A stretch of DNA of 42,511 bases from Acidobacteriaceae bacterium (GTDB taxonomy: Bacteria > Acidobacteriota > Terriglobia > Bryobacterales > Bryobacteraceae). Made by a program: the position numbers and the translations under genes. The DNA lies in NCBI GenBank assembly GCA_020247055.1, contig JADCJL010000274.1, positions 1 through 42,511 on the forward strand. The letters run 5' to 3'. This document shows, one piece after another, positions 1 through 42,511 of this stretch. The notes under the pieces were generated by a model. It was not told where the DNA came from, searched no databases, and saw nothing but the letters and a program-made list of their open reading frames with translations. Each line of letters opens with the position of its first letter. The first letter of the stretch is position 1.

Positions 1-141
1 GCGTGGACACCACGGGCCCGCTGCGGCTTTACGGACGATTTGCGTTCCTGTCCTCATCGTCCGCCTCGCTGGCGGGCCGCCTGGCGCAGGACGATGCGGG
101 AACCCGCGCCCGTTTCTGGACCATCCGGCAGGTAAAAAAGC
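1..141. repeat. Terminal direct repeat, left copy (circular-contig overlap)
   Basis: The first 141 bases are identical to the last 141 bases (42371-42511). Overlap of this kind, of one fixed length and with no mismatch, is what de Bruijn assemblers leave when a circle is written linearly; 141 is a common maximum k-mer. A coding frame continues through the join without a break. The unique circle is therefore 42,370 bp. A true biological terminal redundancy is less likely, because the repeat lies inside one gene. Confidence 0.93.
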
Positions 142-209
142 TGGCAAAAAAAGCCGGCGGGGATTGGCTAGTGCGCCTACATGCCCGCCGGCTGAATGGC
201 CCCCGCTAG
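1..209 (+). CDS. Polysaccharide deacetylase (NodB-like), C-terminal part across the circle join
   Basis: This is the 3' end of the gene that starts at 41791. On the circle, codon CGC is split with its first base at 42370 and its other two bases at 1-2, and the frame runs on to TAG at 207-209. The whole protein is 262 residues. This part is the last 69 residues, with the basic, Trp-containing stretch FWTIRQVKKLAKKAGGDW near the end. Read alone it would look like a short GTG-started ORF at 3, but it is not a separate gene. The catalytic motifs lie in the part described under 41791-42511. Its stop is 6 bases from the stop of the convergent beta-helix gene. Confidence 0.9.
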   Translation, partial: VDTTGPLRLYGRFAFLSSSSASLAGRLAQDDAGTRARFWTIRQVKKLAKKAGGDWLVRLHARRLNGPR

Positions 210-233
210 GGCTCTCTATGGAATGAGAGGCCC
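209..233. terminator. Possible bidirectional hairpin between convergent genes
   Basis: GGGCTCTC at 209-216 pairs with GAGAGGCCC at 225-233 with one bulged base and an 8-base loop. It overlaps the stop codons of both convergent genes (207-209 and 216-218). There is no clear T-run on either side, so it may be a weak or factor-assisted terminator. Confidence 0.35.
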
Positions 234-3032
234 CACCCGGGAGTTGCCGACCACCGACTGGTCGAGGGCAATGTAATTCGCCCGCCAGTAGAGTGCCTGG
301 GTCAAGGTGACGGGAACGGTGATGGTGCAGCCGCTGGAGCAGACCACGGCCGAGGTGGTAGTTCCCAGGCTCGACGTGGGGCCATAGCTGATGCTGGCGG
401 TAGCCACGGTGCTCCAGTTGGGCGGCGTGAGCCGGATAGTAATGGTGGTCGCAGAGGCGGCAATACCGGTGGTGGCAAAGGAGCCGGTATTCTGGCTGCC
501 GCCGCACAGGAGGCGATAGTAGTATAGGGTCCCGGGGCTGAGGCCAGAGGCCAATAGACTGCGGTCCCGGCTACCGCCGGAATCTTGGAAGCGCAACGGC
601 GAAGCGTAGGTGGATGAAGCGGATACGTCCAGCCAGCAGATATCGCCATCCGGCGCGACGTAGCGGACAACGGCCTGCGTCCGGCCGATGTTGGCCACGC
701 GAACTCCGCTCACCAGACCGATCGCCCGTTCGAGCACCGCTACATTGACGCCGACATCGTCGCCATCGGCGGCGGCGGATGCCGCGCCGGCCCGGTAGGG
801 CGACGACGGTTGCAGACGAAAGTTGCCGGTGGCGGCGCTGGTGAATTTCAGCGCGTCTTCGCCGGCGGCGGCGTCACCAGGCCAGTAATTGCCCGACGGA
901 TATCCGCCCTGTTCGATGGCCGTGTCGCCCGGGGTACCGGCCACGATAGCGTTGTGTGTGAACAGGTAGGAGGCAGTGGGCATGCGCATGGCGGTTTTGT
1001 TCAGCTTAGTGACCGCGTTGGCCGAACCCGCGGTTGTGCCGTCGGGAAAGGCCGTCGGGCTATAGCGAAGTCCATTGCCGCCGCCGGCGACGCCGCGGTT
1101 GAGCCATAAAATATTGCTTCGCCAGGATAGTCCGGAGAAGGCGCGCTGTTCGGCCAGATGGAGGAAAGCGGGCCCGGTGCCGGTGTTGTTGTAGACCGTG
1201 TTGTGTTCAAAAATCAGATCGGCCACGCCGCTGGAGGCAAGAATCTGTCCCCGCGTCGAGTTGAAACCGCCGGCCTGGGAGATAATGTTGTTGTTGATCT
1301 CGTAGAACAGGTTGTTCCTGATCGTCAGCCGCTCGGTGGGACGTGTGTTGCGGTACCCCTGGTCATCGCCCGACCAGATCTCCATGAACCCGGTGCCCTT
1401 GCGGAATATGTTGTTGGTGATGGTCAAATCGCTTACCTGGTAAGCGTTACCATCGAATCGGGAGGACCCGGAGGCGCGCGGCGTGATGATCATGGCCGGA
1501 TAGGTGCCGACGGTGCTCCAGTAGTTTTCAAACACATTGCCGTCTAGCCAAAGGCGGCGGCCGCGTTTGAGTTCCAAAGGACCGCGGACATCGCGGCAGA
1601 TTCCGTCACTGGAAGGCGAGCCGCAGCGCTGCGCGTCATTATAGGTGAAGGTGTTACGGCGCACCTCGAAATCGTCGCGTGGGATGGCACCGTCGTTATC
1701 GTTGACGAACAGCAGGATACCAGCGCCGCGGATGTAGTTATTAACGATCTTAAACGGCCCGGTGCCGCTGGTGATATTGATGATCTGTGCGCCGCCGGCA
1801 ACATTATAGGGTACCAGGGTGGGCACAACGCGCATGTCTAGGTAAGAATCGATCAGGGCGATATTACTCCCGTTCATGCTCAAGGCGTTGATGGCGCTAG
1901 CGGAAGGTCCGACGTAGAAAATACAGCGGTCCACGACAACGTTGCTGTGCATTCCCGAGTAGTTGCCGATATTGAGCAGCGTGCCAACGGAGTTGCCGCC
2001 CAAGTCTCCCGGTTCGAAGCGCAGACCTAGAAAGCGGAAGCCTTTGAGGGCGGTCAGATAGTTGTTGGCGATCGCATAGCCGCCATCGCCGCGCGGGTCC
2101 AAACGGAGCCAGCGGTTGGCGGCAACACAGCGGTAGAGCGAGTGGCGCGAGGAGCCATTGGTAGTGTTGTACCAATAGACGCCCACAGCGCAGGTGGAAG
2201 GCTGCGTGGTGCTTTCCGTATATCCAGCGGTGACGTTGACCGCAGTCCAGACGTTGGTGGCGGTACAGACCCGGTACTTGTTGAGGCCGGTGGCGGCGGT
2301 GTTCCAGTAGTAATCTCGCGGAGAGCAGCCGCCGGGATCGGTGGACTGCTGGGTATCGCCGATGGACGGATTGACGAAGACGGGCATGGCGCTCTCCCAA
2401 CTCCGGGTGGCGCGGACGCCGGGCGGTGGAAGGGCGGTATCGGCGCTAGCCGAGCGGATAACGATATAACCGGAGCCGTTCGCGTTGGCTCCGTTTTTGG
2501 GGCTGATGTCGTAGGGTCCCACGCAGATGGCCGAAGCCGGTATACGGACCTCGTGGTTCAGGTTTCCGTCGGCGGCGCGCGCCTGGTTGACGCGGGTCAT
2601 GAAATCACTACAATCGGAGGCGACCGTAAAGGTGCTACCGTTGATGATCGGCATGACCGTGGACATGGTGGCGGGCAGTATGGCCGGCATGGGCACACTA
2701 TCTGTGTCGGCCAGAGTGACAAGCGTCTGGTTGGCTGAGCAGCCAGCGGGCGGTGTGTAGCTTTCGTTACAGATGCGCCAATTGTAGGTGGTGCCGCCGG
2801 CCATGCCCGTCATCTGATGCACGAAGCCGCCGCTACCGCCGAAGTTGGAGGTGCGGAAGCCGTATGACGTGGTGGTGCCGTACTGCACGTAAAAATTGCC
2901 GCTGCCCGAGGTGGTAAAACCAACGCGGGCCGTTGAGCGCGTAATGGCATCCGATTGCATGCCGGTGATGGCGGGCTGGGCCTCCAACAGTCCGGCAAAG
3001 AGTGAGAAAAGCAAGAAGAGTAGGAAGACCAT
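216..3032 (-). CDS. Secreted right-handed beta-helix protein with FN3-like ends and two Cys-Cys-Trp modules
   Basis: The gene encodes 938 residues. I chose ATG at 3032 because it is followed by a clear signal peptide (MVFLLFLLFSLFAGLLEAQP) and preceded by AAAGGA; the longer open frame upstream only shadows the neighbouring gene. Order: signal peptide (1-19), a fibronectin-III-like domain (about 20-105), the start of a pectate-lyase-like beta-helix, two tandem modules of the form C-x19/20-C-x5-W (about 240-315), then a long beta-helix (about 320-760) with repeated N-rich turns such as NNYIRGAGILLF, and a second FN3-like domain (about 790-880). It is a close paralogue of the protein at 24909-27524, sharing long nearly identical stretches around NDND..PRDD.EVRRN and RCGSP.SDGICRDVRGP. 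The gene sits 2 bases after the 3035-3916 gene, in one operon. Such folds occur in polysaccharide lyases, C5-epimerases and surface adhesins. No catalytic residues can be assigned from reading. Confidence 0.8.
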   Translation of the reverse strand: MVFLLFLLFSLFAGLLEAQPAITGMQSDAITRSTARVGFTTSGSGNFYVQYGTTTSYGFRTSNFGGSGGFVHQMTGMAGGTTYNWRICNESYTPPAGCSANQTLVTLADTDSVPMPAILPATMSTVMPIINGSTFTVASDCSDFMTRVNQARAADGNLNHEVRIPASAICVGPYDISPKNGANANGSGYIVIRSASADTALPPPGVRATRSWESAMPVFVNPSIGDTQQSTDPGGCSPRDYYWNTAATGLNKYRVCTATNVWTAVNVTAGYTESTTQPSTCAVGVYWYNTTNGSSRHSLYRCVAANRWLRLDPRGDGGYAIANNYLTALKGFRFLGLRFEPGDLGGNSVGTLLNIGNYSGMHSNVVVDRCIFYVGPSASAINALSMNGSNIALIDSYLDMRVVPTLVPYNVAGGAQIINITSGTGPFKIVNNYIRGAGILLFVNDNDGAIPRDDFEVRRNTFTYNDAQRCGSPSSDGICRDVRGPLELKRGRRLWLDGNVFENYWSTVGTYPAMIITPRASGSSRFDGNAYQVSDLTITNNIFRKGTGFMEIWSGDDQGYRNTRPTERLTIRNNLFYEINNNIISQAGGFNSTRGQILASSGVADLIFEHNTVYNNTGTGPAFLHLAEQRAFSGLSWRSNILWLNRGVAGGGNGLRYSPTAFPDGTTAGSANAVTKLNKTAMRMPTASYLFTHNAIVAGTPGDTAIEQGGYPSGNYWPGDAAAGEDALKFTSAATGNFRLQPSSPYRAGAASAAADGDDVGVNVAVLERAIGLVSGVRVANIGRTQAVVRYVAPDGDICWLDVSASSTYASPLRFQDSGGSRDRSLLASGLSPGTLYYYRLLCGGSQNTGSFATTGIAASATTITIRLTPPNWSTVATASISYGPTSSLGTTTSAVVCSSGCTITVPVTLTQALYWRANYIALDQSVVGNSRVGPLIP

Positions 3033-3034
3033 TG

Positions 3035-3916
3035 CTAGAATCCTTTCACGAGTACGGCGGTATAGGTTGCCGAGACGGGGTTGACGGCGGTGCCGAAAAG
3101 GTTGCACACCCAGACGCTCACTGTACCGGCGGCGCTGACGCGCATGAATGGCATAAGGCCCGCTTCGAGGGCAGCCGGCCAACCGGGCGACAGGGCGCTG
3201 CCGGCCACGGCACCGGGCATGTTCATCGTCAACGGCGAGGCGCAGGTTCCGGAGTTGATCGACGGGAAATCGAGCGTGCTGGACGCAAAGAGAGCGGCGG
3301 GCACAACGGCGGTATCCAGGCCGACTGCATAATCGCTGCCGACCTGCGTGACGGTGATGCCGGCACCGGCGGAAACGGTGCTGCTGCCGCCGCCACCACC
3401 ACCGGAAACGGTGGCCGGTTCCCATTGGCCGAGACCGCTATTGGCGGCCGCGTTCCAAGAAAGCACCTGGCCATTGAATGGTGTGACGGAAGAGACTGTC
3501 TTCCCCTGCAATTTCCGCACGACCGTGGTGTTGATGTTGCCGTCGATATCGCCAGCCGGAGCCAGCCATGCCGTGGCACTGCCGCTGACGACCAGCACCT
3601 TACCGTTTTGCCCAGTGATATCGGGCGGGCTACTGGGGGATGAGCCGCTCATCTGGGCCCAGGTGTTGGTAGCCACGCAGCCATAGAGATTCTGTCCGTT
3701 GGCCGCATTCGTAAGAAAGTACATTTCTCCGATAGCACAGGCGGCGGGCAGGACCGTTCCCGTCTTCACCGGGCGGGTGGCGGCTGCAGTAGTGAAATCG
3801 ATATTTCTAGCCTGTTCGCGCAGATCGACCTTGGTTTGACCATCGGCATTGCGCGAAATGGCTACAGATAGTAGCAGGCAGCAGAAGGCTGGCCGGAGAC
3901 TCATAAACCGTTTCAT
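3035..3916 (-). CDS. Secreted beta-rich protein with one Cys-Cys-Trp module
   Basis: The gene encodes 293 residues starting at ATG 3916, with AAGGAAAGG about 9 bases upstream. Residues 1-27 form a signal peptide ending near ADGQ. Residues about 55-90 carry one C-x19-C-x5-W module (CAIGEMYF...LYGCVATNTW), the same kind as the two modules in each beta-helix protein of this circle. The rest is Gly/Ser/Thr/Val-rich with a run of six glycines near residue 172, then a beta-type tail ending in TYTAVLVKGF. No enzyme motif is visible. It lies first in a two-gene minus-strand operon, 2 bases before the beta-helix gene, so the two products probably act together outside the cell. Function unknown. Confidence 0.75.
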   Translation of the reverse strand: MKRFMSLRPAFCCLLLSVAISRNADGQTKVDLREQARNIDFTTAAATRPVKTGTVLPAACAIGEMYFLTNAANGQNLYGCVATNTWAQMSGSSPSSPPDITGQNGKVLVVSGSATAWLAPAGDIDGNINTTVVRKLQGKTVSSVTPFNGQVLSWNAAANSGLGQWEPATVSGGGGGGSSTVSAGAGITVTQVGSDYAVGLDTAVVPAALFASSTLDFPSINSGTCASPLTMNMPGAVAGSALSPGWPAALEAGLMPFMRVSAAGTVSVWVCNLFGTAVNPVSATYTAVLVKGF

Positions 3917-4133: not shown

Positions 4134-4679
4134 ATGGAAGCAGACCAAGAACGGATGGACGAACGGATGGCCCGGGACTTTTGGGAGGCGGCGCGGTGGC
4201 CTGGCGGCCAACCGCGGTGTCCGCACTGCGGCTGGCAGGAGCGCTGTTACCGGCTGACGCCGCAGCCAGGAAGCCGGACACGGGAGGGGCTGTGGCGCTG
4301 CGGAGGGTGCCGGAAGCAGTTTACGGTTACGGTGCGGACGGTGCTGGAGGGGGGGAAACTGCCGCTGCGGGTGTGGGTACGGTTAATTGAGCTGCTGTGT
4401 TCGCGGGCGGCAGGTTGGACGGTGAGGGAACTGAGCGAGGCACTGCGGATCAGCTATATGAGCGCGTGGATGCTATCTGACCGGATCCGGTATGCTTTGA
4501 ACCAGGAACCGTTTTCGGGGACTGACGTGATGCGGTGGCGCGTGGAAGGGCGGGCGTCATTTTATCCGTTGTCGGAACAGAAGGCGGCGGCGATGCTGTT
4601 GGCGGTCGTACCTGAACGTAAACATCCGCTGGCGAGCGCCCGGCAGTTGGCGCGACTGGCACGGAGACGGAGCGGCTAG
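4134..4679 (+). CDS. IS1595-type zinc-ribbon/HTH protein lacking the transposase catalytic domain
   Basis: The gene encodes 181 residues. Near residues 25-60 there is a zinc-ribbon pattern (CPHCGW ... CGGCRKQF), followed by a helix-turn-helix-like stretch (WTVRELSEALRISYMSAWMLSDRIRYAL), in the order seen at the N terminus of IS1595/ISXO2 transposases. Where those enzymes continue into the ISXO2 DDE domain (typically ...VEVDETY.GG), this one has an unrelated tail of about 50 residues rich in Arg, Ala and Leu. It cannot be an active transposase. It is most likely a truncated IS remnant, less likely a domesticated DNA-binding regulator. The frame is intact. A second start is possible at 4155. 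It sits between the secreted-protein operon and a decayed GT39 gene. Confidence 0.55.
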   Translation: MEADQERMDERMARDFWEAARWPGGQPRCPHCGWQERCYRLTPQPGSRTREGLWRCGGCRKQFTVTVRTVLEGGKLPLRVWVRLIELLCSRAAGWTVRELSEALRISYMSAWMLSDRIRYALNQEPFSGTDVMRWRVEGRASFYPLSEQKAAAMLLAVVPERKHPLASARQLARLARRRSG

Positions 4680-5890: not shown

Positions 5891-6268
5891 CTACTCGCCC
5901 ATCTCGGATCCCCACGTTTCTGGTGGGGGGGAGTAAGGGCCTGTGTCCAGTTCGGCTTCGATGGCGCGGATGAGGATATCGGTCATGCTGATGTCGTTAA
6001 ATTGGGCGGTGCGTTTGAGGCGAGCGTGGAGAGTGACGGGGAGTTTGGCGTTCATGAGAACGGCAGTTTCTTTGCGCCGGGCCGGTGGAATTCTTCCCTT
6101 AGAAGTCTTTACATCTTTACGTATGTCTTTATGTAAAGATGTTCCGACAGAAACGCCTAAAATCTGCTCTTCCATTTCGGTGGTAAAAGAGACCGGGGTC
6201 ACGCGCGGCATGGACGGCAGTGAGGCCTTGAGGCCCATTAAGCTCCCGCGGTCGTTTGATTTAGACAT
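5891..6268 (-). CDS. Ribbon-helix-helix partition/repressor protein (ParG/ParB-like partner of ParA)
   Basis: The gene encodes 125 residues starting at 6268, inside the 3' end of parA (31-base overlap), which is typical of a translationally coupled par pair. The C-terminal half (about residues 65-110: [41 protein letters not shown], given here in outline) has the spacing of a ribbon-helix-helix fold, with a beta strand ending in KLPV and two helices. The N-terminal half is polar and basic, like the flexible tail of ParG-type proteins that stimulates ParA ATPase. By analogy with ParF/ParG systems it should bind repeats near the operon and repress it. Clusters of TCTTTAC repeats upstream, inside and downstream of the operon are candidate sites. 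The small size and lack of a ParB-type domain argue against a classical ParB. Confidence 0.7.
6105..6142. promoter_or_regulatory. TCTTTAC repeat cluster 2, inside the RHH gene
   Basis: GTCTTTACAT (6105-6114), ATCTTTACGT (6113-6122), GTCTTTATGT (6125-6134) and an inverted copy TGTAAAGATG (6133-6142) are packed into 38 bases of coding sequence. The same motif occurs upstream of parA. This density within codons suggests a binding site for the RHH protein. Confidence 0.45.
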
Positions 6269-6948
6269 GTAAGAACCTCCTCGGTAAGTTGCCGCAATTC
6301 AAGACTTGCTTTCGATTGGGGCCGATAGTCGATGACGGCCTGACCGACGGCTGGGGCTTCGGCGAACATCTGCCGGCTGCAAATTTCGGTAGCAAGAACG
6401 GTGACGGGCAGACCGTCGGCGGCGAAGATGGCTTCGGCGGCCCGGTGAGCCTCAGCGCCTAGGCGGGTATGACCGGCAGGCCGACCGTTAATGACAAGCA
6501 TGACTTTTAGCGGGGCGCCCGGACGAAGAAAGGAGACGTCCTGGAGAAGAGGAAGGATGATAGCGGCGGCCTGGTAGTCGAGCGGGGTGGGGCGGACAGG
6601 CATAAGGACAGCGTGGGAGGCGAGCAGAGCCGAACGGGTGATGTCGGATTTTCGATCGGCGCCGGACGCGGCTCCGGGCGGGCAGTCAATGAATACCAGG
6701 TCGTAACCGGCTTTTTCGAATTGGGCAGGGAGTTCTTTATGGATAGTGGGGAAGGGGTAGGGTTGGATGTGGAAGGGGAGAGCACTTTCCTCGCGGTTGT
6801 TGCGCCACTGCATGGCGCTGGCCTGGGGATCGGCGTCGACAAGGAGGACGTTGTAGCCGACACGGGAGAAGCAGGCTGCGAGGTTCATGGAGATCGTGGT
6901 TTTGCCACAGCCGCCTTTTTGGTTCGCGACGGCGATGACGTAAGGCAT
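6238..6948 (-). CDS. parA: ParA-family partition ATPase
   Basis: The gene encodes 236 residues. The deviant Walker A motif is at residues 11-18 (KGGCGKTT, with the signature lysines K11 and K16), followed by SMNLA. Walker A' is around [11 protein letters not shown] (residues 40-50), and Walker B is in [11 protein letters not shown] (near 80-90). The length is that of the short ParA group (about 200-250 residues) that lacks an N-terminal DNA-binding domain and relies on its partner protein for repression. It is followed, with overlap, by the RHH gene, and preceded by CTTTACGT repeats at 6967-7004. It would move plasmid copies apart over the nucleoid before division. The start ATG at 6948 lies 19 bases from the first repeat. 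Confidence 0.92.
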
Positions 6949-6966
6949 AGAGAAAGAATACCATAT

Positions 6967-7371: not shown

Positions 7372-7421
7372 TTGCCACTATCCTCTTTGCTTTCAACGGG
7401 ATCAGGAATACTACAGTTGTT

Positions 7422-7445
7422 CATATGTTTTCTCATGTGTTTTCA
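7422..7445 (+). promoter_or_regulatory. Short tandem repeat before rep
   Basis: CATATGTTTTCT is followed directly by CATGTGTTTTCA (two 12-base units, one mismatch inside the core). It lies between the iterons and the likely rep start and may be a rep operator or part of its promoter. The evidence is limited to position and repetition. Confidence 0.3.
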
Positions 7446-7521
7446 AACAAACAGGGCTGGAAATGTTCTTGTCATGCCTGCCTGCCTGTGTAAAGATCGC
7501 TGTACGGTCATCCCACTTTGC

Positions 7522-9036
7522 ATGAGAGACTCGCAGCCAAAACAGCAGAAACTCTTCGCCGCAGGCCAGCAGAAAGCCGAAGTGGTGCGTGTTGAGAAGA
7601 ATCTCAATACTATTGGTTTTTTTACGCCTTCGAGCAAAAAACTGGTAGGTCTCTCGGTAAAGACGATTAAGGTCAAAATACGTTCAAGTACGGGACAGAG
7701 GGTAGACGCTCGGGCAACAATTTTCCCAGTAGCCGAATTCGGTCTGCCGACAACTGCTGATCAGGACAAGTATTTTGCTTTTCAAAAATTGGTTGAACGG
7801 ATGCGTGGCCAGGATGGCAAGATCCGAAATCCGGTCCAGTTCTCTTCCGGTGAGATGCTGTCCATTCTGGGAATGACGCAGGGAGGGAAGAATTACCAGG
7901 AGATATCGGTCTGGCTGCGGCGGATGACATTTACCGGTATTGAATCGGAAGGGGTCGTTTTTTTGGCGGGGAAGAAGAAGTATGCCCGCGATATGTTTCA
8001 CGTCTTCCATCGGGCGGTAGCGATGGGCGAAGTGCTCGAGGATGGTACGCTGGCACAGGAAAATTATGTGTGGCTGAGTGACTGGCAACTGGACAATCTG
8101 AACAACCGCCACACGCTGCCGGTGAATTATGACGTCTACCGGAGACTGCAACTGCATATCGGGAAGGCGCTGCTGCCGCTGTTGCAAATGTGGCTTTACG
8201 CCAGCCGGGAGCAGTATTGCGAAAAACGATACACGCAACTCTGTTCGCTGCTGGGTATTCAGCAATATCAGGCAGTTTCCCGGATCCGACAGCAGCTGGC
8301 GCCGAGCCTGAACGAATTACGCCAGCAGGAGTTTCTCTCCAACTGGGAGATAGGCGAAACGGCCGATGGCACCGATTTCAAGCTCCGCATGTGGGCCGGG
8401 GCGGCATTTGTCAGCAGTGCGGATCTGCGACGACCGGCGCAGCCGAAGGCTTTGCTGCTGCCGGATCAGAACAATATCGTCAAGGCTTTGGTTGATCGCG
8501 GGGTAAGAGAAGACAAAGCCAGGAACCTCCTGCTCAACATGCCCGAGGATCAACTGGCAATGGATCAGATTGAATGGGCCGATACAGAGATTGCGCGCAA
8601 GTCGCTGACGGCGGGAGCGATCCAGAACATTCCCGGTTTTCTCATCTACATACTGCAATCGAACCATCCGGTGCCGGCCTCATTTATGAGTACGCGCCGG
8701 CGCCACCTGCAGGAAGCCGCCGCCGAGCAGACCGAGAATGAACAGGCCCAGGCGGCCCGCAAGGAAGTGGAACGCTACGCCTGGATGGAGCGATACGACC
8801 AGTTTCTGGCTGAAAATACCGATGCCTACATCGCCAGCAACATACCGGAGCCGCTTTTGAAGCGTCGGCTGGCGGCGATGCGAAAGCAGGTCCTGCAAAT
8901 GAATACTATGGCGAAAGGATGGCCCGCGCAAGTGATTGATGAGTACTCCCTGCGTATGCTGCGCCAGGAGTTGGCGATGGATCTGGATCTGCCGTCATTT
9001 GACGATTTCTGTCAGTCGCAGACTCCATTGTTTTGA
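7522..9036 (+). CDS. repA: Plasmid replication initiator (RepA-like)
   Basis: The gene encodes 504 residues from ATG 7522. Other in-frame starts exist at 7474 (ATG) and 7372 (TTG); none has a clear ribosome site, and the recognisable protein begins around QPKQQKLFAAGQQK. The first 250 residues resemble plasmid initiator proteins of the replication-initiator-A/TrfA type: a polar start, then FPVAEFGLP...KYFAFQKLVERM, a winged-helix-like part (SSGEMLSILGMTQGGKNYQEISVWLRRMTFTGI, in outline) and a second one around LLPLLQMWLYASREQYCEKRYTQLCSLLGI. The C-terminal half is a long, charged, Gln/Glu/Arg-rich helical region that may form coiled coils. Direct repeats lie just upstream (7264-7371), as expected if the product binds them to start replication. 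The initiator type is recognised by pattern, not by an exact match. Confidence 0.78.
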   Translation: MRDSQPKQQKLFAAGQQKAEVVRVEKNLNTIGFFTPSSKKLVGLSVKTIKVKIRSSTGQRVDARATIFPVAEFGLPTTADQDKYFAFQKLVERMRGQDGKIRNPVQFSSGEMLSILGMTQGGKNYQEISVWLRRMTFTGIESEGVVFLAGKKKYARDMFHVFHRAVAMGEVLEDGTLAQENYVWLSDWQLDNLNNRHTLPVNYDVYRRLQLHIGKALLPLLQMWLYASREQYCEKRYTQLCSLLGIQQYQAVSRIRQQLAPSLNELRQQEFLSNWEIGETADGTDFKLRMWAGAAFVSSADLRRPAQPKALLLPDQNNIVKALVDRGVREDKARNLLLNMPEDQLAMDQIEWADTEIARKSLTAGAIQNIPGFLIYILQSNHPVPASFMSTRRRHLQEAAAEQTENEQAQAARKEVERYAWMERYDQFLAENTDAYIASNIPEPLLKRRLAAMRKQVLQMNTMAKGWPAQVIDEYSLRMLRQELAMDLDLPSFDDFCQSQTPLF

Positions 9037-24833: not shown

Positions 24834-24908
24834 GGACGGGCTCTATGATAAATCGGTACCGGGCAAAATCCGATAATGAAGCCAACATCTGCGACCTGGA
24901 AAGAAATT

Positions 24909-27524
24909 ATGAGGCGTAAACGATTCGTGTCGCTGTCCGTTTTTGTGCTGGTTGTAGCGACTCTCGGTATTTACCGGGCGTGGGGTCAGAACGACATCCA
25001 GATTTCTAATATCCAGGCTGATTCCGTAACAAAAACATCTGCCCGTATTGGTTTCCGTACGACAAAGGCCGGTATCTACCGCCTTTTGTACGGTGTTGAT
25101 CAACGTTACGGCTATATAAGCTCCAGCGCCTCGGTCACCAACGCGGCCGTGATGATACTCACCGGACTGCCCGCTGACCGAGATATCCATTACCGCGTCT
25201 GTTACTTACCTGATAACTCTGATCAGATGCTCTGCACCGCCGACCAGGTGGTCCACACTGCCAAGGCAGATACCCCCGGTGTCGAACTGGCCGTCCTGCC
25301 CAAAACGTTCGATGCGCCCATGCCCACCGTTAACGGGCTGACGTTCACTGTCAACGACAAATGCACGGACCTGCAGCAGCAGTTGCAGCTGGCTGCCCAG
25401 GCCGATGGCGCCCTGAACCATCAGGTACTCCTCCCGCCCCAGGCCGTCTGTTATGGCAACTTTGAATTCCAGGCCAAACGAGGTCCTAACCCGCGCGGCG
25501 AAGGTGTGATCATTGTCCGCACCGCCGCGCCCGATAGCGCTCTGCCGCCGGAAGGCATGCGCATTAGCCCGGCTTGGGAAAAGTCGATGGCCCGCATCGC
25601 CAATAATGCGATATTCAGCAATTTCGATAGCTCTCTACCGGGCCAGTGCTCACCGGAGGAGTTCTTCTGGCTGCGCTCCAGCCCGAACGAGAACAAGTTC
25701 CACGTGTGTGTGGATAAAAACACATGGAAGCCGGTCGAGTCCCTCCCCTCCTATCGTACCGGGACCTCGATACCGTCCGGTTGCGACGAAGGCCAACTGT
25801 TCTTCCTGCAGGCATCCGAGGCTGGCGCCCAATACAGCCTTTATCGTTGTGTCATCGGCGGTAATGCCTGGATTCCCCTCAATCCCCGCGGCGACGGTGG
25901 CGCGGCCCTGTCCAACCCTTATGAACAGGGCGTACGGGGCTATCGCTTCGTCGGCATCATCTTTGAACCCGCCGAGGCTACCGGCCTTAGCTACGGCACG
26001 CTCTTAAACATCGGCAACTACAGCAACGCCCACGAAAACGTAGTGGTCGATCGTTGTATCTTCCGCGTTCCGGCCACGGCCAGTGTCATCCGGGCCCTTG
26101 ATCTGAACGGCTCCCGTGTTGGCGTCATCAACTCTTGGTTCGATATGCGCGTCGCCGTCGGCTCCCATCCTTATAACCCGTCTGCCGGCTCCCAGATCAT
26201 CAACATCACCGGCGGCACCGGGCCGTTCAAAATCGTCAACAACTACATCCGCGGCGCGGGCATCCTTCTGTTTGTCAACGATAATGACTCCCGTGTACCG
26301 CGCGACGATATCGAAGTCCGCCGTAATAACTTTTCCTATAACGACGATCACCGCTGCGGTTCGCCCACCAGCGACGGCATTTGCCGCGACGTCCGCGGTC
26401 CCATCGAACTCAAACGCGGCCGTCGCGTTCTGTTTGAAGGCAATATCATCGAAAACTTCTGGAGCACCCTCTCCGGCGGCCAAGCCTTCATCATCACCCC
26501 CCGCGCCTCCGGTTCCAATGGTCCGGACCGCAACGAATACCAGATCTCCGATCTCACCATTCGCTACAACATCGTCCGTAACGGCAGCGGTTTCGTCCAG
26601 ATTGTGGGCCAGGACGATGTCGGCTATCGCAATACCAAGATCACCCAGCGTGTCACCATCACCGACAATCTTGTCACCGGTATCAATGGATTCACCCAGG
26701 CTGCTAAAGATTACGGCCCCACTCGCGGTCAGATTCTTGCCATCGCCAACGGGGCTGAGGATGTCACGTTCCGCCATAATACCGTGGTCAATAACCGAGG
26801 TACTGGTCCGGCCTTCCTCCACGGATCCTATGCCGCCGTGGGCGGTCTGGATTACCGCGATAACATCCTCTGGGTGAATCCTACCCAGGCCGGCGGCGGC
26901 ATTGGCATCCGCTGGAGCGAACCCGCCTTCCTGCCCAACGGTCTGGCCATCAACCGGGCTAGCGAACAGGCCATCCTGAACGCCATGGCACTGCGCATCC
27001 CCAACGTTTCTTATCAGTTTTCCAACAACGTGATCATCGCCGGCCCCGGCGTCAAGGTTTCCGACCTCCGCAAGAACTATCCCAACGCCGCCTCTAATTT
27101 TTTCTCCGAACAGGCCGCTGCCGACAGTGACCCGGTCGGCTTCGAGGACATGCAGTCCGGCAACCTCCGGGTGAACGTTGCAAGCCCGTTCAAAAGTACC
27201 AGCTCCGATCGCAACGATCCTGGCGCCAATATCGACGAGATCGTCAAACGAAGCGGCGAGATCCGCGCCCAGTGGATCGGCGATGTGTTCCCCGACGCCG
27301 CCACCCTCATCTTCTACCCGCCCGATAGTTTTCGCTGCCTGGTGGAAGTCAGTGATTCAAACTCTTTCACCAACCCCATCCGCGTTCGCGATGAATCCGC
27401 CGAGGAAGAGGATCGTCACATGATCCGTGTGGCCGGCCTAAAGCCGGATACCGCTTACTTTTACCGTCTGCTCTGCTCCTCGGCAACCGCGCAAGGCGAT
27501 TTCCGCACCTTGGGCGTGCAGTAA
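24909..27524 (+). CDS. Secreted right-handed beta-helix protein with FN3-like ends and two Cys-Cys-Trp modules (paralogue)
   Basis: The gene encodes 871 residues. I chose ATG 24909 because GGAAAG precedes it and the signal peptide follows (MRRKRFVSLSVFVLVVATLG); the frame extends to ATG 24876. Order: signal peptide, FN3-like domain (about 28-115), pectate-lyase-like start, two tandem modules C-x19-C-x5-W and C-x21-C-x6-W (about 250-325), beta-helix (about 330-720; NNYIRGAGILLFVNDND, RCGSPTSDGICRDVRGP), and a C-terminal FN3-like domain (about 785-865). It is the paralogue of the gene at 216-3032 and sits directly before the flippase gene (its TAA touches the GTG), which ties it to the polysaccharide. 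Beta-helix proteins beside uronate pathways are often epimerases or lyases. I see no defined catalytic triad, so that stays inference. Confidence 0.8.
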   Translation: MRRKRFVSLSVFVLVVATLGIYRAWGQNDIQISNIQADSVTKTSARIGFRTTKAGIYRLLYGVDQRYGYISSSASVTNAAVMILTGLPADRDIHYRVCYLPDNSDQMLCTADQVVHTAKADTPGVELAVLPKTFDAPMPTVNGLTFTVNDKCTDLQQQLQLAAQADGALNHQVLLPPQAVCYGNFEFQAKRGPNPRGEGVIIVRTAAPDSALPPEGMRISPAWEKSMARIANNAIFSNFDSSLPGQCSPEEFFWLRSSPNENKFHVCVDKNTWKPVESLPSYRTGTSIPSGCDEGQLFFLQASEAGAQYSLYRCVIGGNAWIPLNPRGDGGAALSNPYEQGVRGYRFVGIIFEPAEATGLSYGTLLNIGNYSNAHENVVVDRCIFRVPATASVIRALDLNGSRVGVINSWFDMRVAVGSHPYNPSAGSQIINITGGTGPFKIVNNYIRGAGILLFVNDNDSRVPRDDIEVRRNNFSYNDDHRCGSPTSDGICRDVRGPIELKRGRRVLFEGNIIENFWSTLSGGQAFIITPRASGSNGPDRNEYQISDLTIRYNIVRNGSGFVQIVGQDDVGYRNTKITQRVTITDNLVTGINGFTQAAKDYGPTRGQILAIANGAEDVTFRHNTVVNNRGTGPAFLHGSYAAVGGLDYRDNILWVNPTQAGGGIGIRWSEPAFLPNGLAINRASEQAILNAMALRIPNVSYQFSNNVIIAGPGVKVSDLRKNYPNAASNFFSEQAAADSDPVGFEDMQSGNLRVNVASPFKSTSSDRNDPGANIDEIVKRSGEIRAQWIGDVFPDAATLIFYPPDSFRCLVEVSDSNSFTNPIRVRDESAEEEDRHMIRVAGLKPDTAYFYRLLCSSATAQGDFRTLGVQ

Positions 27525-28802
27525 GTGCTGGCCGGATTATGGCGTTCGGCCATACATTCTCTTCGCCGCGATCCGGCTGTTCTCCGGAACTTCCTCGCCT
27601 TGGGCTTCATCCAGATCGCCAACTACGGCCTGCCCATCCTCACCATGCCATACCTGGTCCGTACCCTCGGCATCGCCAACTACGGCCTGCTCGCCTTCGC
27701 CCAGTCGCTCAGTCAATACGCCAAGCTCATCATTGACTACGGCTTCGACCTCAGCGCCACCCGCGCCATTTCGCTCGCCCAGGACGATCCCGCCGCCCGT
27801 TCCCGTGCCTTTTCCGCCGTCCTCTGGATCCGCCTTGGCCTAGCCATTGTTTGCTTCACGCTCCTGCTCGGCGCCGTTGCGGCTAGTTCCAAACTACGCT
27901 CGTACTGGTCCATTCACCTGCTCACTTTCCTCAGCGCCGCCGCTTCCTCCCTGTCCACCATCTGCTTCTTCCAGGGAATTGAGCGGATGGAATACATCAC
28001 CTACCTTTTCACCGCCAGCCGGCTCATCATCACCGCCTCAATCTTTCTCTTTATCCGCTCGGAAAACGACTACTACCTGATGCCCGTCATCAATGGCGTC
28101 ACCGAGTTCCTGCTCAACCTGGCCGGCCTCTGGCTCGCCACCAGCCGCTTCCACCTGGCTCTCTACCGTCCCCCGGCGGCTGAAATCTGGCGCGGCCTGC
28201 GAGAAGGCTGGCACCCCTTCGTCAGTTGGCTTTTTCAGAACTCCTATACCGCCGCCCGGACGTTCTCCCTGGGTCTTTTCAACAACGAAGACATCACGGG
28301 CCGTTTCGTTCTCGCCGCCCGCCTCTCCGAGGTGGCCCAGATGTTCCCCCTGGCCAGCCTGCTGCAGGCGCTCTACCCCCGCCTCAGCAGACTCTACGAA
28401 CAAGACCCCACGGAGAGTTTCCGTTCCATGCGCCGCTTCCAGCTCTGGACCACTCTCGCCTATACCGCCGGCATTCTCATTGTCATGCCCCTGGCCGGCT
28501 GGGTCGTCCGCCTGGTAGCCAGACAGGAGTATCCGGAAACCGTTCTCTCCCTGCAACTCCTCCTTGCCGGCGTCTGGATCATTAACTGCAACGCCTTCCG
28601 GCTTCAGTTCCTCCTCGTCTCCAAACGCTACAAGGTGTACTCCGGTCTGCAGTTAGCTGCCGGCACCATCGGCAGCGTTCTGCTGTTTACCGGTTCCTGG
28701 GCATATTCCTACATCGGCGTCGCCGCCGCCCTCAACTTCGTCTCACTGCTGCTGCTGATCGCTTCGCTCTACCTGGTCAAGGAGCCGGCCGCGGAAGGCT
28801 AA
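27525..28802 (+). CDS. Wzx-type polysaccharide flippase
   Basis: The gene encodes 425 residues starting at GTG 27525, directly after the stop of the beta-helix gene. It has about 12 membrane segments. The N-terminal stretch LRNFLALGFIQIANYGLPILTMPYLVRTLGIANYGLLAFAQSLSQY (in outline) is the classic start of the oligosaccharide flippase family (Polysacc_synt), including the G..NYG repeat and the FD/SATR stretch (GFDLSATRAISLA, about 73-85). It moves lipid-linked repeat units from the cytoplasmic to the periplasmic face of the inner membrane, for the polymerase at 12121. Its stop overlaps that of the convergent dehydrogenase gene by 2 bases. Confidence 0.92.
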   Translation: MLAGLWRSAIHSLRRDPAVLRNFLALGFIQIANYGLPILTMPYLVRTLGIANYGLLAFAQSLSQYAKLIIDYGFDLSATRAISLAQDDPAARSRAFSAVLWIRLGLAIVCFTLLLGAVAASSKLRSYWSIHLLTFLSAAASSLSTICFFQGIERMEYITYLFTASRLIITASIFLFIRSENDYYLMPVINGVTEFLLNLAGLWLATSRFHLALYRPPAAEIWRGLREGWHPFVSWLFQNSYTAARTFSLGLFNNEDITGRFVLAARLSEVAQMFPLASLLQALYPRLSRLYEQDPTESFRSMRRFQLWTTLAYTAGILIVMPLAGWVVRLVARQEYPETVLSLQLLLAGVWIINCNAFRLQFLLVSKRYKVYSGLQLAAGTIGSVLLFTGSWAYSYIGVAAALNFVSLLLLIASLYLVKEPAAEG

Positions 28803-35705: not shown

Positions 35706-36830
35706 ATGCATGTAAATTGGGTAATCGTCGGGGCCGGATTTACCGGCTGTACGCTAGCCGAGCGGATCGCGACGCAATGGAATCAAAAGGTCCTGTTGTT
35801 GGACCGCCGCAGCCACGTTGGCGGAAACGCCTATGACCATTACAACGAACATGGCGTTCTCGTGCATCGCTACGGTCCCCACATCTTCCATACGAACTCA
35901 CGGAAGGTATGGGAGTATCTAAGCCAGTTCACCGAGTGGCGGCCCTATTATCACCATGTTCTAGGGGTCGTCGATGGGAAACAGATCCCCGTTCCGTTTA
36001 ATCTGAACTCGCTTTACGCCCTCTTCCCCGCCCGCTACGCCGGCAAACTCGAGGAGCAGTTGCTGGCCGCCTATGGCTACGGCGTCAAGGTGCCGATTTT
36101 GAAGATGCGGGAGAGCGAGAACTCCGATCTGCGCTGGCTGGCCGGCTACATCTACGAAAATATTTTTCTCCACTATACCCGCAAGCAGTGGGAGCTTGAC
36201 CCCGATCAGCTCGACCCAGGCGTCACCGGCCGCGTTCCGGTCTATATCAGCCGGGACGACCGGTACTTCCAGGACACCTGGCAGTCGATGCCCAGCGAAG
36301 GCTATACCGCGCTCTTCCAGCGCATGCTCAACCACAAGAACATCCGCGTGCTGCTCAATACCGATTGGCGCGAGATCGACGGTGAAATCCGCTATGACCG
36401 CATGATCTACACCGGTCCCATCGATACCTACTTCCAGTACGCCCACGGCGCCCTGCCCTACCGCAGCCTCCGCTTTGACTTCCGCACAATCGACAACGAA
36501 TGGCATCAGAACGTCGGAACGGTCAACTACCCCAACGAGCACGACTTCACCCGCATCACCGAACAGAAGTACCTCACCGGCCAGACATTGCCCAAGTCCA
36601 CCATCGTCGTCGAATACCCGCAGGCCTACAAACTGGGCGAGAACGAACCCTATTACCCGGTTCCCCGCCCCGATAACCGGGAGCACTACGAGAAGTATCT
36701 TCGCGAAGCCTCCTCCCTCGGCGGCAAGGTCCTTTTCGCTGGCCGGCTAGCTGATTATAAGTACTACAACATGGATCAAGCCGTCGCCCGCGCCCTCAAA
36801 CTCTTTGAAGACGAGGCCGCCGACCGGTGA
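35706..36830 (+). CDS. glf: UDP-galactopyranose mutase
   Basis: The gene encodes 374 residues, the usual length. FAD-binding motif VIVGAGFTGCTLAERIA (about 6-22), then RSHVGGNAYDHYNEHGVLVHRYGPHIFHTNSRKVWEYL (in outline), the typical Glf N terminus. PFNLNSLYALFP, IYENIFLHYTRKQWELDPDQLDPGVTGRVPVYISRDDRYFQDTWQSMPSEGYTALFQRML (in outline) and YTGPIDTYFQYAHGALPYRSLRFD give the substrate site with conserved Arg and Tyr residues. FAGRLADYKYYNMDQAVARALKLF closes the FAD site. It converts UDP-galactopyranose to UDP-galactofuranose. The next gene overlaps it by 4 bases and is a likely galactofuranosyltransferase. The upstream gap (35590-35705) is AT-richer than its surroundings and should hold the promoter. 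Confidence 0.97.
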   Translation: MHVNWVIVGAGFTGCTLAERIATQWNQKVLLLDRRSHVGGNAYDHYNEHGVLVHRYGPHIFHTNSRKVWEYLSQFTEWRPYYHHVLGVVDGKQIPVPFNLNSLYALFPARYAGKLEEQLLAAYGYGVKVPILKMRESENSDLRWLAGYIYENIFLHYTRKQWELDPDQLDPGVTGRVPVYISRDDRYFQDTWQSMPSEGYTALFQRMLNHKNIRVLLNTDWREIDGEIRYDRMIYTGPIDTYFQYAHGALPYRSLRFDFRTIDNEWHQNVGTVNYPNEHDFTRITEQKYLTGQTLPKSTIVVEYPQAYKLGENEPYYPVPRPDNREHYEKYLREASSLGGKVLFAGRLADYKYYNMDQAVARALKLFEDEAADR

Positions 36831-40607: not shown

Positions 40608-40657
40608 GACGTTTTTGTGTACAGTTTTTGGCACCAGATGAGGGGGAATTCCGCACC

Positions 40658-41785
40658 ATGAAAGTCCATGTGCAGCCTTTTACGGAGCCTTGGATCGCCC
40701 CCGTCAGGGAGTTCAATGCCCGTCTGCAGGCGGTTGGCCTGGATGCCGATCTGCAGTTTCCCGAGTCGCCAGTGCCGGAGTTTCCGGCCCAGCCGGGCCG
40801 CGACTTCTTTCAAGAATACTATCTGGCCACCGAATCTGAGCCGCCCGCCGTGCGCGGCTGCTTTTGGCTCACGTTTGAGCCCTGGATACTGGACGGAGAG
40901 CAGATTTCCACCTCCCACTACCGTCTGCCGGTCTCAGAAGGCATCGCAAACGCGGACTATAAGCCGGTCGCCGGAGAGCTCATGAAAGCGGCCCTCGCCC
41001 GCCAGCCATTTCTCTATTGCCTGGGAATGGGAGGATTTGACCGGCCGGTCACCAAGAGCCTGAAAAAACAGGGCTGGCACATGGCCGCGATTCCGTTTTT
41101 CTTCCGGGTGGTGCATCCGGGACGCTTTTTGCGCGAAATGCCGTCTTTGCAGCAATCCCCTTTGCGCCGCGCAGCGGCCGCGGCGGGCGCCTGGACCGGT
41201 ACCGGCTGGGCCGGTATCCACGGCGCGCAGTGGTTCCGGACGCAGCACCCACCGGCGGCGGAAACAATACAAACAGAATGGATTCAATCATTTGGAGATG
41301 CCGACGAGGCGCTCTGGCGAACGGCGGCGCCCGCCTACCGCTTCCTCGCCCGCCGCGATACCGAAACGCTCAATCTGCGCTACGGCTCAACCACTTTCCG
41401 GCGTTCCCTGCGCCTGGCCGTCCGCCGCGGCGACCGCTATCTGGGCTGGGCGGCATGCCTGGATACGCCCATGCGCGGCAACAAGTATTTCGGCAATCTG
41501 CGCGTCGGTTCCCTCATCGACATCTTCGCTCATCCCGATGACGCCGTCGCCGTGGCCGGCGCCGCTTGGCGCGTCCTGGCAGCGCGCGGCGTCGATCTCA
41601 TCGTCGCCAACTTCTCCCACCGCGCCTGGCAGAACGCACTCACCGCCAACGGCTTCTGGCGCACCAGTTCTAACTACGTCTTTGCCGTTTCCGTGCCGTT
41701 GGGCGAACGCCTCGCCCCCATGGAGACCAGCCTGCCGGACTTTCACATCACACGCGCCGACGGGCCCGGCCCGACGCGGCTATAG
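40658..41785 (+). CDS. GNAT/FemAB-like acyltransferase
   Basis: The gene encodes 375 residues from ATG 40658, with GAGGGG about 11 bases upstream; the longer open frame to 40475 overlaps the previous gene in another frame. The N-terminal half (FTEPWIAPVREFNARLQAVG ... DFFQEYYLATESEPPAVRGCFWL, in outline) and the C-terminal half (LRYGSTTFRRSLRLAVRRGDRYLGWAACLDTPMRGNKYFGNLRVGSLIDIF ... VANFSHRAWQNALTANGFWRTSS, in outline) look like two GNAT-type units, as in FemAB-like proteins. It may acylate a sugar of the polymer, the opposite of its deacetylase neighbours. It lies 5 bases before the second deacetylase. Family assignment is by pattern only. Confidence 0.65.
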   Translation: MKVHVQPFTEPWIAPVREFNARLQAVGLDADLQFPESPVPEFPAQPGRDFFQEYYLATESEPPAVRGCFWLTFEPWILDGEQISTSHYRLPVSEGIANADYKPVAGELMKAALARQPFLYCLGMGGFDRPVTKSLKKQGWHMAAIPFFFRVVHPGRFLREMPSLQQSPLRRAAAAAGAWTGTGWAGIHGAQWFRTQHPPAAETIQTEWIQSFGDADEALWRTAAPAYRFLARRDTETLNLRYGSTTFRRSLRLAVRRGDRYLGWAACLDTPMRGNKYFGNLRVGSLIDIFAHPDDAVAVAGAAWRVLAARGVDLIVANFSHRAWQNALTANGFWRTSSNYVFAVSVPLGERLAPMETSLPDFHITRADGPGPTRL

Positions 41786-41790
41786 GAAAT

Positions 41791-42511
41791 ATGCGCGCCG
41801 TTAGTCTCATGTATCACGACGTAGTTTCCCCGGGGGCCGAGGAGGAAAGCGGTTTTCCCGGCGGGCATTCCCGTATCTATAAGTTGCATACAGAGCTATT
41901 TTCCGCACACCTTGACGCCGTGGCTGCCTCCGGCGCCTCCGTTTGCAACGATGTCCGCGCGCTCACCGCCGCTTCCCGCCCCGCGGTGCTGTTCACCTTC
42001 GACGACGGTGGGGTGAGCTTCCTGGACCCGATCGCCGGTATGCTCGAGGCGCGTGGCTGGCGCGGTCACTTTTTCATCACGACGGGCCGGGTCGGCTCGC
42101 CGGGTTTTTTGACGGCGGCCCAGGTTCGGGAGCTTGCCGGGCGCGGTCATATTGTCGGGTCTCATTCGGTCCACCATCCCACGCGGATGGCGGAGTTGCC
42201 GGCCGCACACATGAGCGAAGAGTGGGCCGAAAGCCGGAAGGCTCTTGCCGATCTTCTCGGCGCTGCAGTGGATACGGCTTCGGTACCGGGCGGCTACTAT
42301 TCCCGCCAAGTAGCGGTTTCGGCGGCCGACGCCGGATTCGGGCACCTGTTTCACTCCGAACCGGTGACACGCGTGGACACCACGGGCCCGCTGCGGCTTT
42401 ACGGACGATTTGCGTTCCTGTCCTCATCGTCCGCCTCGCTGGCGGGCCGCCTGGCGCAGGACGATGCGGGAACCCGCGCCCGTTTCTGGACCATCCGGCA
42501 GGTAAAAAAGC
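41791..42511 (+). CDS. Polysaccharide deacetylase (NodB-like), main part; continues at 1-209
   Basis: The start ATG 41791 lies 5 bases after the previous stop. The full protein on the circle is 262 residues. MRAVSLMYHDVVSPGAEEE opens motif 1 (MYHDVV). LFTFDDGGVSFLDPIAGML (about 70-88) is the metal-binding motif. HFFITTGRVGSPGFLT follows. IVGSHSVHHPTRMAELP (about 129-145) holds the HxxHHP-type metal pair, and ASVPGGYYSRQVAVSAADAGFGHLFHSEP is the substrate strand (in outline). It looks active. It is the last gene of the deacetylase-DUF218-acyltransferase-deacetylase run. The final 141 bases of this entry are the circular overlap. Confidence 0.9.
   Translation, partial: MRAVSLMYHDVVSPGAEEESGFPGGHSRIYKLHTELFSAHLDAVAASGASVCNDVRALTAASRPAVLFTFDDGGVSFLDPIAGMLEARGWRGHFFITTGRVGSPGFLTAAQVRELAGRGHIVGSHSVHHPTRMAELPAAHMSEEWAESRKALADLLGAAVDTASVPGGYYSRQVAVSAADAGFGHLFHSEPVTRVDTTGPLRLYGRFAFLSSSSASLAGRLAQDDAGTRARFWTIRQVKK
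42371..42511. repeat. Terminal direct repeat, right copy (circular-contig overlap)
   Basis: These bases are identical to 1-141. Drop one copy to obtain the 42,370-bp circle. Confidence 0.93.

What the first reader, a model, noticed from the sequence alone, without database searches (positions are those of the whole stretch)
1..42511. The window is a complete 42,370-bp circular plasmid dedicated to surface-glycan synthesis
An exact 141-base end repeat and an uninterrupted gene across the join show a circle. Iterons, Rep, ParA/RHH and a resolvase supply replication and maintenance. Nearly all other intact genes belong to glycan assembly. Small replicons almost wholly given to one polysaccharide are uncommon, and a plasmid-borne glycan would be a portable surface trait.
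Basis: partly seen in the sequence, partly recalled or inferred. Interest (0 to 1): 0.8.

Follow-up and report, generated by a model that had tools for sequence, protein, structure and literature searches.

The report
Acidobacterial plasmid carrying a polysaccharide factory
This is a complete small circular plasmid of an uncultured Acidobacteriota bacterium, mostly filled with genes for building what is probably a cell-surface sugar polymer, and some relatives in other genera carry different versions of the same sugar module on related plasmids.

Summary
The window is a whole contig whose 141-base ends are identical and have no other full-length match in the assembly; a deacetylase gene runs across the join and aligns through it to relatives. 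Rep (Pfam RPA), iterons, ParA and a resolvase make it a replicon. About 31 of 42 kb is glycan genes (20 kb by direct Pfam evidence). Among 27 related Rep contigs whose ends I read, 4 close as circles; 3 of these are glycan plasmids. Eight Rep contigs carry its WbpS-like amidotransferase gene (0.11 expected by length). Backbone and cargo disagree: the nearest plasmid shares ParA at 83% and Rep at 69%, the amidotransferase only at 56%; a tree rejects a single plasmid origin of that gene (p 0.0002). Two sister plasmids keep 26 of 29 genes with dN/dS of 0.20 or less. The plasmid lacks an initiating sugar transferase and an outer-membrane exporter; the host assembly has both. My reading: it specifies an exchangeable, probably uronamide-containing surface polysaccharide that the chromosome starts and exports. 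Plasmid EPS loci are known elsewhere: a new variant of a known kind. No relaxase was found. Coverage, copy number and the glycan itself are untested.

The parts
1..141 (.). end repeat, identical to 42371-42511
42371..42511 (.). end repeat, identical to 1-141
41791..42511 (+). polysaccharide deacetylase PDA2, N-terminal part; continues through the join to base 209 (262 aa in all)
   Evidence: PF01522 71.1 bits; aligned across the join
1..209 (+). C-terminal part of PDA2
216..3182 (-). secreted-looking protein bh1, beta-helix-type by relation to bh2 (45% identical)
4134..4679 (+). IS1595-type transposase fragment
   Evidence: PF12760
5891..6268 (-). small protein beside ParA, ribbon-helix-helix-like by eye only
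   Evidence: no Pfam hit; 69% identical in G011; sequence
6238..6948 (-). ParA partition ATPase
   Evidence: PF13614; NF041546 175 of 180 bits
7139..7372 (+). iteron array: units at 7287, 7308, 7330, 7351; diverged ones at about 7265 and 7139 by eye
7372..9036 (+). Rep, replication initiator protein A family; true start probably downstream of 7372
   Evidence: PF10134 32.0 of 27 bits
9054..9611 (-). serine resolvase/invertase
   Evidence: PF00239
11177..11926 (+). glycosyltransferase GT2a
   Evidence: PF00535
11908..13467 (+). Wzy/O-antigen-ligase-type polymerase
   Evidence: PF04932 63.5 bits
13474..15411 (+). Asn: asparagine-synthase-type sugar amidotransferase of the eps_aminotran_1 (WbpS) kind
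   Evidence: PF00733; TIGR03108 549 bits, below its 817 cut-off, and TIGR01536 498 bits, above its 267 cut-off
15426..16643 (+). glycosyltransferase GT4a
   Evidence: PF13692; TIGR03087 234 of 317 bits
16640..17872 (+). membrane protein, GT-C-like by eye
   Evidence: no family hit; sequence
17875..18711 (-). methyltransferase MTa
   Evidence: PF08241
18835..19977 (+). glycosyltransferase GT2b
   Evidence: PF00535
20203..21179 (+). decayed membrane-protein remnant (by eye)
   Evidence: short ORFs without family hits
21163..22122 (-). methyltransferase MTb
   Evidence: PF08241 27.4 bits
22157..23341 (+). glycosyltransferase GT4b
   Evidence: PF00534
23758..24428 (+). IS3-type transposase remnants, shared with other contigs of the host assembly
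   Evidence: PF13683; DNA matches
24876..27524 (+). beta-helix-type secreted-looking protein bh2
   Evidence: PF16655; weak PF13229, below cut-off
27525..28802 (+). Wzx flippase
   Evidence: PF01943
28799..30082 (-). UGD: nucleotide-sugar dehydrogenase
   Evidence: TIGR03026 368 of 190 bits
30144..31217 (+). glycosyltransferase GT4c
   Evidence: PF13692
31254..32795 (+). GT-C/PMT-type transferase
   Evidence: PF13231 26.0 of 26.1 bits
32752..33813 (+). ArnC/PgfS-like polyprenyl-phosphate glycosyltransferase
   Evidence: PF00535; NF047588 284 of 500 bits
33781..35589 (-). heparinase II/III-type lyase
   Evidence: PF07940, PF16889; heparinase III chains in the PDB
35706..36830 (+). UDP-galactopyranose mutase
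   Evidence: TIGR00031 420 of 304 bits
36827..37747 (+). GlfT1-like galactofuranosyltransferase candidate
   Evidence: PF00535; NF050113 93 of 330 bits
37847..38941 (-). methyltransferase MTc
   Evidence: PF13489 31.1 of 27 bits
38870..40000 (+). polysaccharide deacetylase PDA1
   Evidence: PF01522
39783..40607 (+). DUF218 protein
   Evidence: PF02698
40475..41785 (+). h40475, acyltransferase-like by eye; next to PDA2 here and in G181 and G182
   Evidence: no family hit; 38-40% in G181 and G182, beside PDA2

Best explanation
A 42,370-bp circular, iteron/RPA-Rep-type, probably low-copy plasmid (ParA, resolvase) of a Bryobacteraceae-like Acidobacteriota bacterium. Its cargo specifies a Wzx/Wzy-type surface polysaccharide. 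Inferred steps: UGD makes a UDP-uronic acid; the Asn protein amidates it to a uronamide as WbpS does; GT2 and GT4 enzymes, with galactofuranose from the mutase and GlfT-like enzyme, build the repeat unit; Wzx flips it and Wzy polymerises it; the ArnC-like and GT-C pair decorates it on the outer face; deacetylases, methyltransferases, the heparinase-type lyase and the beta-helix proteins tailor, trim or bind it. The chromosome supplies the first sugar transferase and the export pore. Related plasmids carry other versions of the same core module, exchanged between plasmids and chromosomes. Shown: circle, replicon, gene content, recurrence, backbone/cargo discordance, purifying selection on a sister plasmid pair. 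Inferred: the sugar chemistry, surface location, copy number and dependence on the chromosome.
For: Circle. Replicon: 11, 65, 113; Rep relatives (29-32% identity) on closed Acidobacteriota plasmids pACPOL2 and pACPOL4 (Acidisarcina) and NC_015057 (Granulicella tundricola). Skew splits the circle; in each of four circles with this Rep family 0 of 500 block shuffles reach the amplitude. Glycan content: 12-17, 98. Host link: IS3 remnant shared at 86-95% with contigs C78 and C234 of the assembly. Recurrence: 54, 59, 61, 62, 66, 122. Asn gene on 8 Rep contigs, 0.11 expected in the 15 genomes with known contig length. Wzy hits on Rep contigs at least 12 against 1.6 expected. Discordance: 122, 75. 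Purifying selection: 98, 100. Initiator and exporter missing here, present elsewhere in the assembly: 43, 44, 96, 97, 107. Uronamide chemistry of the TIGR03108 family: PMC7468200 passages.
Against: No reads, so no coverage or copy number. The skew minimum (about 42.0 kb) lies 7.7 kb from Rep, so the origin may not be at the iterons, or the plasmid has been rearranged. Asn, GT4a and Wzy score below the cut-offs of their nearest glycan-specific NCBIfam models. Of 39 Rep genomes, 31 do not have the Asn gene on the Rep contig, and 9 of the 17 that have it have it elsewhere. Of four circles with this Rep, G231 shows little of the window's cargo (not scanned with Pfam). The host assignment rests on binning and shared IS remnants; a 4.7-kb piece of the same plasmid sits in a Brevundimonas MAG. 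No glycan was measured.
Confidence: 0.78

Rival explanations
1. The circle is an assembly artefact or an excised form of a chromosomal island or integrative element, not a stable plasmid.
For: The module also occurs on long, presumably chromosomal contigs; IS remnants are present; no reads available.
Against: Rep, iterons, ParA and resolvase together; end 141-mer without another full-length match in the assembly; three further Rep contigs close as circles; sister contigs G181:C9 and G182:C25 are collinear and circularly permuted; replicon-wide skew halves; no integrase hit among the 40 window ORF queries apart from the small resolvase and IS fragments.
Confidence: 0.06
2. The plasmid belongs to another organism and is misbinned in this assembly.
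For: A 4,694-bp contig in a Brevundimonas MAG equals window 6677-11370 at 99.957%; small plasmids bin poorly (general knowledge).
Against: IS3 remnant shared with G000 contigs C78 and C234 at 86-95%; the nearest Rep and ParA (G011) and the nearest Asn protein (G014) are in the same genus; the Brevundimonas record is itself a short MAG contig. Pieces of G000 have GC 0.637 against 0.608 here, tetranucleotide correlation 0.94, which is neutral since several other contigs score as high.
Confidence: 0.1
3. The product is not a free or capsule-like polymer but a protein- or lipid-linked oligosaccharide, for instance an anchor for exosortase-sorted proteins.
For: Asn, GT4a and Wzy have their nearest glycan-specific models among exosortase-associated families; the host has two exosortase hits on other contigs; h40475 sits beside a deacetylase, like the vimA-related gene beside a polysaccharide deacetylase reported in an exosortase locus.
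Against: Scores below those families' cut-offs; no exosortase hit on the plasmid; h40475 gives no NCBIfam hit such as TIGR03019; the heparinase-type lyase suggests a polymer (inference).
Confidence: 0.2

Closest known systems
Lactococcal EPS plasmids (pNZ4000, 42.8 kb)
   Same: Similar size, theta replicon, one EPS cluster with conserved and variable genes on plasmids without common DNA outside the cluster's conserved region (PMC6458302 passages)
   Different: There the cluster carries regulation, initiation and export itself, has 14 genes, and mob elements are present; here initiation and export are absent, no mobility gene was hit, and about three quarters of the plasmid is glycan genes
[quoted passage not shown]
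   Same: Genes for the switch to a sessile, attached life carried on plasmids across a bacterial family (passages in PMC9426580 and PMC5513947; the original paper PMC5030684 was not held)
   Different: No rhamnose-operon (rml) family was hit in the window; different phylum; different gene set
WbpS/eps_aminotran_1 uronamide pathways (P. aeruginosa, E. coli O121, P. gingivalis A-LPS)
   Same: TIGR03108-type amidotransferase acting on a sugar uronic acid; wbpS deletion removes the uronamide in P. gingivalis (PMC7468200 passages)
   Different: The passages do not describe plasmid loci; the window protein scores below the family cut-off
Acidobacteriota plasmids pACPOL2, pACPOL4 (Acidisarcina) and NC_015057 (Granulicella)
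   Same: Same Rep family, 29-32% identity; pACPOL2 has ParA near Rep
   Different: Among the listed features of the stretches I read (24 kb of pACPOL2, 41 kb of pACPOL4; PLSDB's gene table is incomplete) there is no polysaccharide synthesis locus; NC_015057 was not inspected

Membership tests
Plasmid (independent circular replicon) | circular topology | tested here: met
   141-bp end repeat and gene across the join
Plasmid (independent circular replicon) | own replication initiator with iterons | tested here: met
   PF10134 Rep; iterons
Plasmid (independent circular replicon) | copy number and coverage distinct from the chromosome | not testable with these tools
   no reads
Conjugative or mobilisable plasmid | relaxase or type IV secretion genes | tested here: not met
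   none among 40 window ORF queries scanned with Pfam; oriT not searched
Wzx/Wzy-dependent polysaccharide locus | flippase and polymerase | tested here: met
   PF01943, PF04932
Wzx/Wzy-dependent polysaccharide locus | initiating phosphoglycosyltransferase in the locus | tested here: not met
   PF02397 and PF00953: 0 on C195, 4 and 2 on other contigs
Wzx/Wzy-dependent polysaccharide locus | outer-membrane exporter in the locus | tested here: not met
   PF02563: 0 on C195, 5 on other contigs
Exosortase (XrtA/PEP-CTERM) EPS locus | exosortase gene in the locus | tested here: not met
   PF09721: 0 on C195, 2 on other contigs
Exosortase (XrtA/PEP-CTERM) EPS locus | associated families above NCBIfam cut-offs | tested here: not met
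   TIGR03108 549/817, TIGR03087 234/317, TIGR03097 80/188 bits
Roseobacter biofilm plasmid | rhamnose (rml) operon | tested here: not met
   no RmlA-D-type Pfam hit; the definition is from passages and recall

The most novel reading that the evidence does not exclude
A family of non-conjugative Acidobacteriota plasmids acts as interchangeable surface-glycan cassettes: one plasmid backbone carries different alleles of a uronamide-polysaccharide module, so a cell can change its coat by replacing a plasmid while the chromosome keeps the generic start and export machinery.
Probability: 0.35. Interest if true: 0.75.

Novelty: new variant of a known kind. Interest (0 to 1): 0.55.

Why it matters
Acidobacteriota are abundant in soil and hard to culture; a review says that all cultured species are reported to make EPS, and the passages of it that I saw do not place EPS genes on plasmids (PMC7661733). 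A plasmid lineage whose cargo is the recipe for a coat, swapped between plasmids and chromosomes while the backbone stays, would be a route for coat change (phage escape, attachment, drying). The three circles give defined units to test.

Tried and rejected
Considered and rejected: a repeat at the ends shared with other contigs (no other full-length match of the 141-mer); a phage-plasmid (62 pattern matches in viral contigs, none a relative of Rep); a plasmid already on record (near search of window 1-25000 in PLSDB: no match; bases 25001-42511 were not searched there). A single capture of the module by plasmids was tested and rejected for the Asn gene. The beta-helix protein has no PDB relative by sequence; its structure job was accepted but not finished at any of 13 collecting calls, so its role is unknown. 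h40475 gave no hit in Pfam, NCBIfam, PHROGs or PDB sequences. Rep and bh2 have no PDB sequence relative. Literature: ten searches. Those on Acidobacteria/Acidobacteriota or Bryobacter with plasmids and sugar-polymer terms (72, 77, 110, 74) found 0, 1, 10 and 2 papers (6 of the 10 were listed); I saw passages of two of them with no plasmid-borne polysaccharide locus, the others as listings only. An earlier count said that five relatives 'all carry' certain genes; that is wrong, the table is the correct version (G117 lacks GT4a; G011 lacks Wzy, UGD and bh).
Full report
OBSERVATION. The window is contig C195 of a 358-contig, 6.56-Mb assembly (97.7% complete, 4.0% contamination). Its first and last 141 bases are identical and the 141-mer has no other full-length match among the places scored in the assembly. 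The ORF 41791->209 crosses the join. Its homologues in G182, G181 and G165 align straight through the join and on beyond base 141 of the left end. This is as good as circularity gets without reads. The unit is 42,370 bp.

REPLICON. Rep is a replication initiator protein A (PF10134), preceded by 21-22-bp iterons. ParA lies divergently upstream, with a small conserved protein beside it (69% in G011). The resolvase follows Rep. Rep relatives with 29-32% identity sit on closed plasmids of Acidisarcina and Granulicella. GC skew splits the circle into two halves largely regardless of gene strand. In this and three other circles with the same Rep family the skew amplitude exceeds all 500 block shuffles. 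The minimum lies within Rep in G080, about 2.5 kb from it in G231 and 6-8 kb away in G182 and in the window, so the origin position is not settled.

CARGO. Fifteen ORFs pass Pfam cut-offs for glycan families and one lies 0.1 bit below: four GT2 (one ArnC-like, one GlfT-like), three GT4, Wzy, Wzx, a nucleotide-sugar dehydrogenase, UDP-galactopyranose mutase, a WbpS-type amidotransferase, a heparinase II/III-type lyase, two polysaccharide deacetylases and, marginally, a PMT-type transferase. Three methyltransferases, two beta-helix-type proteins, a membrane protein, DUF218 and h40475 are assigned by context. Together these cover 31,155 of 42,370 bp (19,705 by direct evidence), replication and maintenance 3,281. 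The rest is IS remnants, one decayed stretch, small untyped ORFs and spacers.

WHAT IS MISSING. Six-frame searches of the own assembly found no PF02397, PF00953 or PF02563 on C195, but 4, 2 and 5 on other contigs. C202 carries a Wzz/GNVR-AAA protein between an initiator and an exporter; C170 carries an initiator beside a GT2 and an epimerase, among genes such as HSP70 and an aminotransferase. The plasmid therefore most likely relies on chromosomal initiation and export (inference).

RELATIVES. Rep matches at E <= 1e-10 occur in 39 of 237 genomes of the family, including 2 of 19 of the window's genus. Of 18 named records with a Rep relative, 16 are Acidobacteriota by title (among them Bryobacterales and Bryobacteraceae), one Brevundimonas and one Omnitrophota MAG. 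I read the ends of 27 Rep contigs; 4 have exact end repeats: the window (141), G080:C130 (70,539 bp, 141), G182:C25 (44,502 bp, 149), G231:C31 (116,678 bp, 149). G182 and G080 carry many glycan families (27 of 29 and 52 of 55 called ORFs scanned); G231 shows little similarity to the window beyond Rep. Against the window's proteins: G182 and G181 share Asn, GT4a, GT2b, Hep, UGD, Wzy, PDA2, h40475 and beta-helix parts; G080 shares Asn, GT4a, GT2b, Hep, UGD, Wzy, Wzx, PMT and GT4b; G117 shares Asn, GT2b, Hep and Wzy; G177 (12.4 kb) shares Asn, GT4a and GT2b; G011 shares Asn, GT4a, GT2b and Hep; G185 shares Asn, GT4a, GT2b and UGD. The galactofuranose pair has no full-length relative in these plasmids at E 1e-8. 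G182 and G181 carry their own PF00953 initiator and G080 two PF02397 initiators.

ASSOCIATION. A relative of the Asn protein (E <= 1e-150) occurs in 76 of 237 genomes, 79 matches. Of the 39 Rep genomes 17 have it; in 8 it is on the Rep contig, in 9 elsewhere. For the 15 of these 17 whose Rep contig length I had (one Rep contig per genome), 0.11 would be expected by length (P about 5e-13; without the window 7, P about 2e-11). In each of the 8 genomes this was the only match reported, although the search scored at most five candidates a genome. Wzy_C: 189 matches in 28 Rep genomes; at least 12 on Rep contigs of 9 genomes against 1.6 expected (the listing was cut short, so 12 is a floor). Some Rep contigs are long (up to 192 kb) and could be large plasmids or integrated.

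BACKBONE VERSUS CARGO. Window and G011: Rep 69%, ParA 83%, but Asn 56%, GT4a 52%, GT2b 52%, no closer than to other genera. G182, G177 and G185: Rep 75-81% (a partial Rep in G185), Asn 59-61%. In a tree of 34 Asn proteins (34 of 79 matches: 8 on Rep contigs, 12 on contigs over 100 kb taken as chromosomal, 14 unlabelled), well-supported branches force at least 4 changes between plasmid and chromosome (3 in a first tree with a distant outgroup), the label is no more clustered than in shuffles (251 of 500 as low), and one plasmid clade is rejected (p-AU 0.00018). The label 'chromosomal' for contigs of 100-150 kb is an assumption. The window's Asn is sister to that of G014 of the same genus (98/89), which lies on a 6.8-kb contig of unknown kind beside GT4a, GT2b and Wzy relatives.

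SELECTION. G181:C9 and G182:C25, from two species of one genus, are collinear and circularly permuted at 76-93% DNA identity; 26 of 29 genes have a match, with dN/dS between 0.008 and 0.20 (dS is high in a few). A plasmid of this type is thus kept with its glycan cargo under purifying selection. This is shown for the sister pair, not for the window itself.

CHEMISTRY. TIGR03108-type amidotransferases (WbpS, WbqG) turn sugar uronic acids into uronamides (PMC7468200 passages). Together with UGD this suggests a uronamide-containing polymer; the heparinase-type lyase fits a uronate backbone (inference). Exosortases exist in the host but not on the plasmid, and the exosortase-associated models score below cut-off, so I do not file the locus there.

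HOST. The IS3 remnant is shared at 86-95% with contigs C78 and C234 of the assembly. A 4,694-bp contig of a Brevundimonas MAG equals window 6677-11370 at 99.957%. It is a separate record linking rep to the first glycan gene; its host label is probably a binning error, and whether the two samples are independent is not known.

VERDICT. New here: the recurrence, the backbone/cargo discordance and the missing initiation and export. Plasmid EPS loci are known in lactococci and roseobacters, so this is a new variant of a known kind.

Noticed in passing
216-3182 and 24876-27524, with 5488-5542 / 24791-24845: Two beta-helix-type paralogues lie as inverted copies (78-83% DNA over 219 and 120 bp), each near IS remnants and a shared 55-bp inverted repeat; recombination could invert about 25 kb.
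   Followed up: partly
window about 21.9 kb and 42.0 kb: GC skew switches at two nearly opposite points, 7.7 kb from Rep; origin position unexplained.
   Followed up: partly
L049 (JADCBH010000034.1), 4,694 bp: Piece of the same plasmid in a Brevundimonas MAG, 2 mismatches.
   Followed up: yes
L188 (G242:C373) and L187 (G126:C388): Stretches with the Asn gene and a ParA (53%) or resolvase (49%) but without a match to this Rep: possible further glycan plasmids with other replicons.
   Followed up: no
G011:C587 (L017, L018): The nearest plasmid relative has what looks like an ABC-2-type permease and ATPase pair beside its glycan genes, judged by eye from ORF translations: perhaps a different export route on the same backbone.
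   Followed up: no
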